64,000 bases of DNA from Antilocapra americana (Eukaryota; Chordata; Mammalia; Artiodactyla; Antilocapridae): positions 21,806,748 through 21,870,747 of the forward strand of contig ML664199.1 in the NCBI GenBank assembly GCA_007570785.1. Direction: 5' to 3'. The notes beneath the pieces were generated by a model. The model was not told the origin of the DNA. It saw only the letters and a program-made list of their open reading frames with translations, and searched no databases. Positions 26,830 to 31,238 of the stretch are shown piece by piece (positions within the stretch are counted from its first letter, which is position 1; the number at the start of each line of letters is the position of its first letter). The position numbers and the translations under genes are program-made.

Positions 26830-27437
26830 CCTCTGCTTTATGCTCTACATAACATCTAAGTGATCTTTTCATCATTGAGATCTGATCATATTGCTCTCTT
26901 GGCAGAACTCTTCAACTGCTGCCCACTTTCTTCAGGATTAAAGCTAATCTCCTTTGAGTAGTAACCTTGTATACCCATTAGGGTCTGATTTCTGTCTAAT
27001 TCTGCCTGTTAGGGTCTGATTTCTGTTTAACTCTGTCTCTTTCCTAGATGTTTCCCTCAATGATCCAGCAACACTGAACTATCAGTCTAGAAGTGTCATG
27101 TCTTCTTTGGCCTTTGCGTTTTTGCGTCTGTCTAGGAGGCCTTCCCATTACTCAGTGGGAAAATTCTTTATTCTCTTAAGTCTGAGTGTATATGTGGTCC
27201 CACTCTGGAAGCCTACCCTAGTGTCACCAGCAGGCTTTCCTTCATCTATGATGTAACCTTACTGCATTTGTGCATGTAAATATTATGTCATTACAAATAC
27301 TGGTTTACCAACTAGAATATAAACTTCTTGAGGGAAGGAAACATGTATTTTCATCTTGTTTCTCTGGCACTTAGTACAATGTCTGGTATGTGCAAGTTCT
27401 CAAAAAAATGTTTTAAATGTGTGAATGAATAAATTAA
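26830..27437 (+). repeat. L2 LINE 3' end
   Basis: The order of blocks is L2-like: CTCTTCAACTGCTGCCCAC, AGGATTAAAGCTAATCTCC, CACTCTGGAAGCCTACCC, then TAAACTTCTTGAGGGAAGG, GGCACTTAGTACAATGTCTG and GAATGAATA. A 33-bp tandem repeat (TTAGGGTCTGATTTCTGT) lies near 26977-27035. The tail is the target of the next L1 insertion. Confidence 0.75.
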
Positions 27438-27479
27438 TCAATTAATGACAGAAGCTGTAGAGAATAAATTTATAGTTTT
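27376..27479 (+). repeat. left copy of a 104-bp target-site duplication
   Basis: From ACAATGTCTGGTATGTGCAA to TTTATAGTTTT. It matches 31135-31238 at about 100 of 104 positions without a gap. It contains the end of the L2 tail and the flank beyond, so it is genomic target sequence and not part of the L1 between the copies. Confidence 0.93.
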
Positions 27480-27600
27480 TTTTCAATGCCATTCTCCCAT
27501 ATCATCCCACCCTTGCCCTCTTCCACAGAGTCCACGTGTCTGTTCTATACATCTGTGTTTCTTTTGCTGTCTCGCATGTAGGGTTCTCATTACCATCTTT

Positions 27601-30600
27601 CTAAATTCCATATATATGCATTAGTATACTGTATTGCTGTTTTTCCTTCTGGCTTACTTCACTCTGGATAATAGGCTCCAGTTCCGTCCACCTGAGTAGA
27701 ACTGATTCAAATGAATTTTTTTTTTTTAATGCTGAGTAATATTCCGTTGTGTATATGTACCACAGCTTTCTTATCCATCTGTCAGTTGATGGGCATCTAG
27801 GTTGCTTCCATGTCCTGGCTATTGTAAACAATGCAGCGATGAACATTGGGGTACACCTGGCTCTTTCAATTCTGGTTTCCTTGGTGCGTATGCCCAGCAG
27901 TGGGATTGCTGGGTCATATGGAAGTTCTATTTTCAGATTTTTAAGGAATCTCCACACTGTTCTCCATAGTGGCTGTACTAGTTTGCATTCCCAGCAACAG
28001 TGTAAGAGGGTTCCCTTTTCTCCACATCCTCTCCAACATTTATTGCTTGTAGACTTTTGGATGGCAGCCATTCTGACAGGTAAAGTGGTACCTCATTGTG
28101 GTTTTGATTTGCATTTCTCTGATAATGAGTGATGTTGAGCATCTTTTCATGTGTTTGTTAGCCATTTTTATGTCTTCTTTGGAGAAATGTCTGTTAAGGT
28201 TTTTGGCCCACTTTTTGATTGGGGGTCGTTTATTTTTCTAGCATGGAGCTGCAGGAGTTGCTTGTATATTTTTGAGATTAATTGTTTGTCCGTTGCTTCA
28301 TTGGCTATTATTTTCTCCCATTCTGAAGGCTGCCTTTTCACCTTGCTTATAGTTTCCTTTGTTGTGCAGAAGCTTTTAATTTTAATTAGGTCCCATTTGT
28401 TTATTCATGCTTTTATTTCCAATATTCTGGGAGGTGGGTCATAGAGGATGCTGCTTTGGTTTATGTCAGAGAGTGTTTTGCCTATGTTATCCTCTAGGAA
28501 TTTTTTTTTTTTTCTTAACAAACCATCTTTTATTAACACTATTATTCAAATAGGAGTTTTATAGTTTCTGGTCTTATGATTAGATCTTTGATCCATTTTG
28601 AGTTTATTTTTGTGTATGGTGTTAGAAAGTGTTCTAGTTTCATTCTTTTACAAGTGGCTGTCCAGTTTTCCCAGCACCACTTGTTAAAGAGGTTGTCTTT
28701 TCTCCATTGTATATTCTTGCCTCCTTTGTCAAAGATAAGGTGTCCTTAGATGTGTGGATTTATCTCTGGGCTTTCTATTTTGTTCCATTGATCTATATTT
28801 CTGTCTTTGTGCCAGTACCATACTGTCTTGATGACTGTGACTTTGTAGTACAGCCTAAAGTCAGGTAGGTTGATTCCTCCAGTTCCATTCTTCTTTCTCA
28901 AGATTGCTTTGGCTATAGGAGTTTTTTTGTATTTCCATACAAATTGTGAAATTATTTGTTCTAATTCTTTGAAAAAGACCTCTGGTAGCTTGATGGGAAT
29001 TGCATTGAATCTATAGATTGCTCTGGGTAGTATACTCATTTTCACTATATTGATTCTTCCAATCCATGAACACGGCACATTTCTCCATCTGTTTGTGTCC
29101 TCTTTGATTTCTTTCATCAGTGTTTTATAGTTTTCTATATATATATGTCTTTTGTTTCTTTAGGTAGAAATACACATAACTATTTTATTCTTTTTGTTTC
29201 AATATTGTATGGAATTGTTTCCTTAATTTCTCTTTCTGTTTTCTCATTGTTAGTGTATAGGAATGCCAGGGATTTCTGTGTGTTGATTTTGTATCCTGAA
29301 ACTTTGCTATATTCACTGATTAGCTCTAGTAATTTTCTCGTAGAGTCTTTAGGGTTTTCTATGTAGAGGATCATGTCATCTGCAAACAGAGAGAGTTTTA
29401 CTTCTTTTCCAGTCTGGATCCCTTTAATTTCTTTATCTGCTCTGATTGCTGTGGCCAAGACTTCCAAAACTATGTTGAATAGTAGTGGTGAGAGTGGGCA
29501 CCCTTGTCTTGTTCCTGACTTCAGGGGAAATGCTTTGTTTTTCACCATTGAGGATAATGTTTGCTGTGGGTTTGTCATATATAGCTTTTATTATGTTGAG
29601 GTATGTTCCTTCTATTCCTGCTTTTTGGAGGGTTTTTATCATAAATGGATGTTGAATTTTGTCAAAGGCTTTCTCTGCATCTATTGAGATAATCATGTGG
29701 TTTTTATTTTTCAATTTGTTAATGTGGTGTATTACATTGATTAATTTGCAAATATTGAAGAATCCTTGCATCCCTGGGATAAAGCCTACTTGATCATTTT
29801 GTATGATCTTTTTAATGTGTTGTTGGATTCTATTTGCTAGAATTTTGTTAAGGATTTTTGCATCTATGTTCATCAGTGATATTGGCCTGTAGTTTTCTTT
29901 TTTTGTGGCATCTTTGTCAGGTTTTGGAATTAGGGTGATGGTGGCTTCGTAGAATGAGTTTGGAAGTTTACCTTCCTCTGCAATTTTCTGGAAGAGTTTG
30001 AATAGAATAGGTGTTAGCTCTTCTCTAAATTTTTGGTAGAATTCAGCTGTGAAGCCATCTGGTCCTGGGCTTTTGTTTGTTGGAAGATTTCTGATTACAG
30101 TTTCAATTTCTGTGCTTGTGATGGGTCTGTTAAGATTATCTATCTCCTCCTGGTTTAGTCTTGGAAAGTTGTACTTTTCTAGGAATTTGTCCATTTCTTC
30201 CAAGTTGTCCAATTTATTTGCATATAGTTGCTGATAATAGTCTCTTATGATCCTTTGTATTTCTGTGTTTTCTGTTGTGATCTCTCCATTTTCATTTCTA
30301 ATTCTGTTGATTTGGTTCTTCTCCCTTTGTTTCTTGATGAGTCTGGCTAATGGTTTGTCAATTTTATTTATCTTCTCAAAGAACCAGCTTTTGGCTTGGT
30401 TGATTTTTGCTATGGTCTCTTTTGTTTCCTTTGCATTTATTTCTGCCCTGATCTTTAAGATTTCTTTCCTTCTACTAGACCTGGGCTTCTGCATTTCTTC
30501 CATTTCTAGTTGCTTTAGGTGTAAAGTTAGGTTATTTATTTGACTTTTTTCTTGTTTCCTGAGGTGAGCTTGTATTGCTATGAACTTTCCCCTTAGCACT

Positions 30601-31134
30601 GCTTTTACTATGTCCCATAGGTTTTGGGTTGTTGTGTTTTCATTTTCATTCATTTCTATGCATATTTTGATTTCTTTTTTGATTTCTTCTGTGATTTGTT
30701 GGTTATTCAGCAGTGTGTTGTTGAGCCTCCATGTGTTGGAATTTGTAAATGGTTTTCTCCTGTAATTGATATCTAATCTCACTGCATTGTGGTCAGAAAA
30801 GATGCTTGGAATGATTTCAATATTTTTGAATTTACCAAGGCTAGATTTATGGCCCAGGATGTGATCTATTCTGGAGATGGTCCCTTGTGAGCTTGAGAAA
30901 AAGGTGAAATTCATTGTTTTGGGGTGAAATGTCCTATAGATATCAATTAGGTCTAACTGGTCTAGTGTATCATTTAAAGTTTGAGTTTCCTTGTTAATTT
31001 TCTGTTTAGTTGATCTATCCATTGGTGTGAGTGGAGTATTAAAGTCTCCCACTATTATTGTGTTATTGTTAATTTCCCCTTTCATACTTGTTAGCATTTG
31101 CCTTACATATTGTGCTCCTATGTTGGGTGCATAT
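27601..31134 (-). pseudogene. L1 ORF2 relic (endonuclease and reverse transcriptase)
   Basis: Pieces in order on the minus strand: 31134-29540 carries the end of the endonuclease (VGDFNTPLTPMD, IFSDHNAVRLD) and the RT to motif A (ISIDAEKAFDKIQ). A 2-base loss near 29538 shifts the frame; 29578-29180 continues with SGTRQGCPLSPLLF (motif B) and LSLFADDMILYI (catalytic motif C). A TAC-to-TAG change ends it after ETKRIK. 29117-28746 reads MKEIKEDTNRWRNVP and ends at a TAT-to-TAA change after NPHI. A 56-bp insertion breaks the frame at 28500. 28071-27601 holds the C-terminal Cys motif (CWRGCGEKGTLLHCCWEC) and the normal HIYGI end. It cannot encode a whole enzyme. Confidence 0.92.
28500..28550 (-). 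mobile_element. 51-bp poly(A)-tailed retro-insert inside L1
   Basis: Compared with the other L1 copy (46710-46735), 56 bases are added. In the minus sense they read TTTGAATAATAGTG, then TTAATAAAAGATGGTTTGTT, AAG and 13 A residues plus T. An AATAAA signal about 15 bases before the A run is the layout of an mRNA 3' end. The 5-mer TAGGA (28495-28499 and 28551-28555) is duplicated. Best read as an extremely 5'-truncated retrocopy of some transcript; the source is unknown. Confidence 0.72.
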
Positions 31135-31238
31135 ACAATGTCTGGTATATGCAAGTTCTCAAAAAACTTTTTTAAATGTGTTAATGAATAAATTAATCAA
31201 TTAATGACAGAAGCTGTAGAGAATAAATTTATAGTTTT
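31135..31238 (+). repeat. right copy of the 104-bp target-site duplication
   Basis: From ACAATGTCTGGTATATGCAA to TTTATAGTTTT, followed by AAAC. The plus strand reads TTTT/AAAC at 31238/31239, a canonical L1 endonuclease nick (TTTT/AA) for an insertion whose sense strand is minus. The four mismatches to the left copy date from after the insertion. Confidence 0.93.

What the first reader, a model, noticed from the sequence alone, without database searches (positions are those of the whole stretch)
27376..31238. A 3.65-kb L1 flanked by 104-bp target-site duplications
27376-27479 and 31135-31238 are the same genomic sequence, about 100 of 104 bases, on either side of a minus-strand L1. Usual L1 TSDs are roughly 7-20 bp. 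The first nick is canonical (plus strand TTTT/AAAC at 31238/31239), and the duplicated DNA is the tail of an L2 plus its flank, so it is target and not L1. This implies a second-strand cut about 104 bases from the first. The four mismatches give a clock for the insertion.
Basis: partly seen in the sequence, partly recalled or inferred. Interest (0 to 1): 0.75.

Follow-up and report, generated by a model that had tools for sequence, protein, structure and literature searches.

The report
L1 insertion with 105-bp target duplication
A jumping-gene copy in what looks like a ruminant genome carries an unusually long (about 104-base) duplicate of its landing site and has lost its own tail end; it is a rare but recognised kind of L1 insertion accident, seen here as a natural germline fossil.

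Summary
In detail: 27375-27479 and 31134-31238 match at 101 of 105 bases and are the only two matches found in the held 2.44-Gb genome. They flank a 3,654-bp minus-strand L1 that starts inside the ORF2 endonuclease domain. The first nick is canonical, TTTT/AAAC. Up to 2 nt of microhomology make the target-site duplication (TSD) 103-105 bp. Of 39 related L1s, 19 gave a TSD above chance: 18 of 11-19 bp, one of 54 bp.

Best reading: target-primed reverse transcription (TPRT) from a canonical nick, primed internally, with the second strand primed from a break ~104 nt away. TSDs over 100 bp are known from cultured cells, so this is a natural example of a known class, not a new mechanism. No related genome was available to show the empty site.

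The parts
27308..27429 (+). L2 3' tail, part of the original target; its last ~55 bp fall in the duplication
27375..27479 (+). left TSD copy (the side that ends in the priming TTTT)
27480..31133 (-). L1 copy, 5'-truncated inside the ORF2 endonuclease domain and 3'-truncated at an internal GGCATTGAAA
27476..27491 (-). 3' junction: GGCATTG-A8-target; no AATAAA or ATTAAA in the last 101 bp of L1 sense sequence; about 200 bp of family 3' UTR and tail missing
31134..31135 (.). 2-nt microhomology (TA) at the 5' junction if the source L1 had the common form GGTGCATATATA; none if it had the form of the second L1 in the window (GGTGCATAAATA)
31134..31238 (+). right TSD copy, 101 of 105 identical to the left
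31235..31242 (+). L1 endonuclease nick site TTTT/AAAC (cut between 31238 and 31239)
28495..28550 (-). 56-bp insertion inside the L1: 37-nt A-tailed retrocopy of an mRNA 3' end (a later event, not part of the TSD)
45867..52399 (-). control: related L1 reaching much further 5', in the same window, with a 13-14-bp TSD CTCACTGTG(G)TTTT
4950..5247 (+). control: L1 3' UTR fragment (4962-5235) with a 12-bp TSD (one mismatch), whose 3' UTR runs on ~225 bp past GGCATTGAAA

Best explanation
This is one L1 insertion made by TPRT. The L1 endonuclease nicked the plus strand at TTTT/AAAC (shown by the motif). The exposed ...TATAGTTTT-3' primed reverse transcription not on the poly(A) tail but on an internal GAAAC of the L1 RNA about 200 nt upstream of its usual end (the 3' truncation is shown; internal priming is inferred). 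cDNA synthesis stopped inside ORF2, giving 5' truncation (shown). The cDNA end joined, across 0-2 nt of microhomology, to a second-strand 3' end 103-105 nt away, and filling in both overhangs left the duplication (inferred from the product). Because 104 nt is well beyond the 7-19 nt stagger measured for human ORF2p in vitro, the second-strand 3' end was probably a host-made break, gap or replication intermediate rather than ORF2p's own second nick (inferred).
For: Only two matches of the 105 bp in the held genome. TTTT/AAAC at the outer edge of the right copy; TTTTAA is expected at about 0.001 per site by base composition and was counted 101 times in 63,994 plus-strand positions. The left copy's L2 continues outward while the right copy starts abruptly. 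Domain content: end of the endonuclease domain plus RT. 3' truncation: 29 of 29 relatives L004-L032 read on past GGCATTGAAA, and in the 10 others the L1 block also extends ~190-350 bp past it; median 202 bp from there to the TSD in 22 relatives; the exact string GAATGGCATTGAAAAAAA occurs at only one other place in the genome, which does not match L1. Two clocks agree: TSD divergence 3.95%, ~2.0% per copy, and private divergence of this L1's 3' UTR ~1.5%. ORF2p top-strand nicks in vitro lie at +7, +11 and +19 (PMC7617806, passages).
Against: No empty-site orthologue could be seen (one search says the genome has no relatives here). The eight-A tail also fits a worn poly(A) tail after a later deletion, and is not short against relatives (longest A run: median 9, range 5-16, n = 22). 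In the repair-deficient cell data the 13 tailless long-TSD inserts all lack a TTTT/A site, unlike this one. Long TSDs there did not strictly need the repair defect: 3 of 9 in the complemented line exceeded 100 bp. TTTTAA also occurs inside both TSD copies (from 27411 in the left), so the motif is not rare locally.
Confidence: 0.82

Rival explanations
1. Copying rather than cutting: after making L1 cDNA, the reverse transcriptase or a repair polymerase jumped onto the target's own intact strand and copied ~104 nt of it before resolution, so no second-strand break at 104 nt was needed.
For: Up to 2 nt of microhomology at the L1/target junction fits a template jump; the product is identical to a TSD. 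Somatic human L1 events show extra synthesis of around 52-220 bp at the 5' side, described there for 3 foldback inversions (PMC10191854, passages).
Against: It adds a step; microhomology of a few nt is equally expected from ordinary 5' joining.
Confidence: 0.12
2. A 105-bp tandem duplication existed first and an L1 inserted exactly at the junction between the two copies without making its own TSD.
For: The product would look the same; the hypothetical junction would read TTTT/TACA, a weak endonuclease-like site.
Against: It needs a duplication ending precisely at TTTT/AAAC and a TSD-less insertion exactly at its junction; TTTT/AA would then be coincidence (about 0.001-0.002 per site). No further copy of this unit was found in the genome.
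Confidence: 0.03
3. Assembly artefact: one copy is a false duplication.
For: The assembly has a gap elsewhere in the window (100 N at 45894-45993).
Against: The copies differ at 4 of 105 sites; no N lies in 26801-31860; both copies sit at opposite ends of a 3.65-kb L1 with a canonical endonuclease site; their divergence is close to that of the L1 itself.
Confidence: 0.02
4. Rival for the 3' end only: a normally tailed L1 later lost ~200 bp by slippage between the internal GAAA and the poly(A) tail.
For: Both ends of such a deletion would be A runs, leaving a clean A8 next to the TSD; A8 is typical of old tails here.
Against: It needs a separate event using 3-4 bases of homology over ~200 bp; no relative among 29 shows it, and the exact string is found at no other L1 in the genome (a copy with a mismatch or shorter A run would be missed).
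Confidence: 0.3

Closest known systems
L1 insertions with long TSD (L-TSD, >20 bp) in HeLa cells (Gilbert et al., as described in PMC4245944, and PMC2912911)
   Same: 5'-truncated L1 with a TSD far above 20 bp; PMC2912911 says 5'-truncated inserts in HeLa were frequently coupled with radical target-site changes including extremely long TSDs
   Different: natural and millions of years old, in another L1 family, and 3'-truncated; in vivo, PMC2912911 found 5'-truncated human L1s leaning to short TSDs (it collected 5-30 bp only)
Long-TSD L1 inserts in XPA-, XPC- and XPD-deficient cells (PMC5223499; passages, section 17 part 1)
   Same: TSD >100 bp; 13 of the 47 tabulated inserts with TSD >100 bp have no poly(A) length given, against 0 of the other 16 (my row count of its Tables 1, 3, 4)
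   Different: none of those 13 has a TTTT/A cleavage site; host repair status is unknown here
Internally primed, 3'-truncated human L1 in EYA1 (row 96 of the disease table in PMC4859970, passages)
   Same: L1 truncated at its 3' end with no tail; the table names internal priming
   Different: that event made a 17-kb deletion and no TSD; this one made a ~105-bp TSD
Rotifer R9 rDNA retrotransposons (seen only as a title in a reference list)
   Same: a non-LTR element with an exceptionally long TSD
   Different: by its title that is a property of the element; here it is an exception in a family whose detected TSDs are mostly 11-19 bp

Membership tests
L1 insertion by TPRT | ORF2 with AP-like endonuclease and reverse transcriptase | tested here: met
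   Exo_endo_phos (profile 138-225 of 225) and RVT_1 (1-109 of 205) in window 29436-31133 minus; 94.5% identity to the longer L1 in the window over 3,301 columns
L1 insertion by TPRT | endonuclease site TTTT/AA on the primer strand | tested here: met
   TTTT/AAAC at 31238/31239
L1 insertion by TPRT | flanking target-site duplication | tested here: met
   the length 103-105 bp is atypical (11-19 bp in 18 of the 19 relatives with a TSD above chance)
L1 insertion by TPRT | 3' poly(A) tail at the element's own 3' end | tested here: not met
   A8 directly after an internal GGCATTG, ~200 bp short of the family end. TPRT with internal priming is a named variant (PMC2837659, passages; PMC4859970)
Long-TSD class (>20 bp, definition in PMC4245944) | TSD longer than 20 bp | tested here: met
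Endonuclease-independent L1 insertion | no TSD and no endonuclease motif (recalled definition) | tested here: not met
   TSD and TTTT/AAAC present; 3' truncation, another feature recalled for that class, is present
Twin-primed L1 | inverted 5' segment | tested here: not met
   27770-31133 is collinear and in one orientation with the second L1; 27480-27769 matches family 3' UTRs over its length in the same orientation
NER-deficiency signature | occurred in a cell with impaired excision repair | not testable with these tools
   the cell no longer exists

The most novel reading that the evidence does not exclude
In the germline, L1 integration can be finished without ORF2p's own top-strand nick: a canonical first nick with mis-positioned (internal) priming was completed from a host second-strand 3' end about 104 nt away. 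The long TSD and the internal priming would then be two signs of one derailed, host-rescued TPRT event rather than two coincidences.
Probability: 0.35. Interest if true: 0.5.

Novelty: new member of a known kind. Interest (0 to 1): 0.35.

Why it matters
Long L1 duplications were described in cultured cells and, according to PMC2912911, put down to peculiarities of HeLa cells; that paper's own in-vivo survey collected only TSDs of 5-30 bp and says longer ones need study. Whether the second strand is nicked by ORF2p or supplied by the host is still debated (PMC7617806). A roughly dated germline locus with a canonical first nick and a ~104-nt offset is a clean data point for that question, and the 54-bp case found among the relatives (L044) suggests more can be mined from mammalian genomes.

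Tried and rejected
Tried without result: other copies of this L1 in viral contigs and GTDB genomes, each with one exact 40-base ORF2 string only; in phages (L1 body) and plasmids (26700-31700), by megablast; no match in any. Rfam at gathering scores found nothing in 26000-32500 and ARAGORN no tRNA in the window. An empty-site test was impossible: the genome has no relatives here. Polarising the four TSD mismatches by the recalled L2 consensus was inconclusive and is not used.

Rejected: that the repeat is part of L1 or another interspersed repeat (two genome matches); that the short 3' end marks an L1 subfamily (29 of 29 relatives read on; the exact string is at no other L1); that A8 alone shows a missing tail (relatives: median longest run 9). 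L022's apparent 41-bp TSD was set aside because the repeated stretch lies inside L1 sequence next to another L1. TSD scores of 9-10 (L033, L042, L046) were not counted as TSDs, because mismatched flank pairs reach 9 or more in 15 of 117 cases and 11 or more in 2 of 117.
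Full report
Observation. The two copies are 27375-27479 and 31134-31238, ungapped, 101 of 105 identical, and the only two matches found in the held 2.44-Gb genome (counts stated to be lower bounds). Between them lies a minus-strand L1 of 3,654 bp. A 566-residue open stretch of it matches the C-terminal part of the endonuclease domain and the reverse transcriptase. The plus strand reads TTTT/AAAC at the outer edge of the right copy. The left copy runs outward into the tail of an L2 (27308-27429), so about the first 55 bases of the duplication are L2 and the rest is its flank (L2 consensus from memory).

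Exact length. A 31-base plus-strand pattern containing GGTGCATATATATTTATAATTG has 265 exact copies in the genome (134 + 131). The second L1 in the window reads GGTGCATAAATATT instead, and I did not count that form. The insert reads GGTGCATATACAATG. If the source had the common form, the bases TA (31134-31135) can belong to either side and the TSD is 103-105 bp with 2 nt of microhomology; with the other form it is 105 bp with none.

In sense orientation the L1 ends GGCATTGAAAAAAAACTATAAATTT, where ACTATAAATTT is target. An L1 3' UTR fragment at 4962-5235 of the window reads on past GGCATTGAAA for about 225 bp. In the genome, 40 places matching the last 290 bp of this L1 were scored out of 2,340 first-look candidates: the L1 itself and 39 relatives at 96-97%. 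Of the 29 relatives fetched there (L004-L032), 29 continue into the same 3' UTR; in the 10 others (L042-L051) the shared L1 block also runs past that point. In 22 relatives the distance from that point to the TSD is 179-243 bp, median 202 (three of the 22 have TSD scores of 9-10, which chance can reach). No AATAAA or ATTAAA lies in the last 101 bp of this L1, whereas the fragment at 4962-5235 has one near its end. The exact string GAATGGCATTGAAAAAAA occurs at only one other place in the genome, and the 1 kb around it does not match the L1 copies compared. The L1 is thus truncated at both ends. The eight As are not in themselves unusual (longest A run in the 22 relatives: median 9, range 5-16); what is unusual is where they sit. 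The target's ...AGTTTT and the L1 antisense ...TGTTTCAATG share GTTT, which would let the nicked strand prime on the internal GAAAC; the junction then has about four extra Ts to explain by slippage. This is inference.

How long are TSDs in this family? I took all 39 relatives (L004-L023 and L033-L051), mapped their 5' ends and searched for direct repeats between the 5' and 3' flanks. A null of 117 mismatched flank pairs reached a score of 11 or more in 2 cases and never 13; the same procedure returns 105 bp for the L1 of the finding. At score 11 or more, with L022 set aside as ambiguous, 19 of 39 have a TSD: 18 are 11-19 bp and one (L044) is 54 bp; none reaches 100. For the other 19 no TSD could be told from chance, so a long or altered target site there is not excluded. 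The sample is the best-matching end of a large family, chosen by an intact 3' UTR stretch, not a random draw. Two controls inside the window agree: the longer related L1 (13-14 bp) and the fragment at 4962-5235 (12 bp with one mismatch).

Age. Four differences in 104 give d = 0.0395, or 9.0 My at 2.2e-9 per site per year (recalled rate), with a Poisson range of 2.4-24 My. That is about 2.0% per copy. The private divergence of this L1's 3' UTR, estimated from mean distances to and among the 39 relatives, is 1.5%, in fair agreement. This argues against an assembly duplicate.

Mechanism. The canonical first nick and the position of both junctions fit TPRT. The second-strand end lay 103-105 nt away. 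A 2025 structural study (PMC7617806, passages) measured ORF2p's own top-strand nicks at +7, +11 and +19 nt and mentions a competing model in which replication intermediates supply the primer. A ~104-nt offset fits the latter better for this event. Template jumping onto the target strand cannot be excluded.

Literature. PMC5223499 (passages; section 17 part 1) states that TSDs over 100 bp never exceeded 10% of events in HeLa cells, and gives 4 of 7, 21 of 23 and 22 of 28 in XPA-, XPC- and XPD-deficient cells and 3 of 9 in the complemented line. By my row count of its Tables 1, 3 and 4, 13 of 47 inserts with TSD >100 bp have no poly(A) length given, against 0 of 16 others (Fisher p = 0.027; the table rows differ slightly from the totals in its text). 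All 13 lack a TTTT/A site, which counts against equating them with this locus. PMC2912911 (passages) limited its in-vivo survey to 5-30 bp and found 5'-truncated L1s leaning to short TSDs. PMC4245944 (passages, section 8) defines the >20-bp class. In sperm, 51 of 51 de novo Alu insertions had TSDs of 8-18 nt (PMC12633430, passages). Passages of PMC11195612, PMC3024322, PMC8620236 and PMC2837659 gave no L1 TSD over 100 bp. I noticed no natural L1 TSD over 100 bp in the listings of the nine paper searches, but these show titles and abstract starts of open-licence papers only, most were not opened, and such cases may well be in print.

Verdict. Real, correctly described and informative, but a member of a known class of aberrant L1 insertions. 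The possible link with internal priming is the part worth testing.

Noticed in passing
window 28495-28550: A 56-bp insertion in this L1 (absent from the second L1) looks like a 37-nt processed retrocopy of an mRNA 3' end (AATAAA signal, then A13) with a short TSD (TCCTA). A 30-base string of it has one other genome match with up to 2 mismatches allowed, an exact one at G000:C2215:2218718, where no A tail follows. It is a remarkably short retrocopy, inserted after the L1.
   Followed up: partly
L044 (G000:C1891:13031201-13041200): A related L1 with a 54-bp TSD (one mismatch), whose cut site is not TTTT/AA and which has TTGT between its A tail and the TSD: a second long-TSD case in the same genome.
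   Followed up: partly
window 45867-52399: A longer minus-strand L1 with a 13-14-bp TSD; an assembly gap of 100 N starts right after a run of 17 T at its 3' side.
   Followed up: partly
window 4950-5247: An L1 3' UTR fragment with a 12-bp TSD, splitting a repeat: 4419-4947 matches 44626-45146 and 5247-5337 matches 45159-45248.
   Followed up: partly
window 26978-27039: Two adjacent 31-bp units, 87% identical, in the left flank.
   Followed up: no
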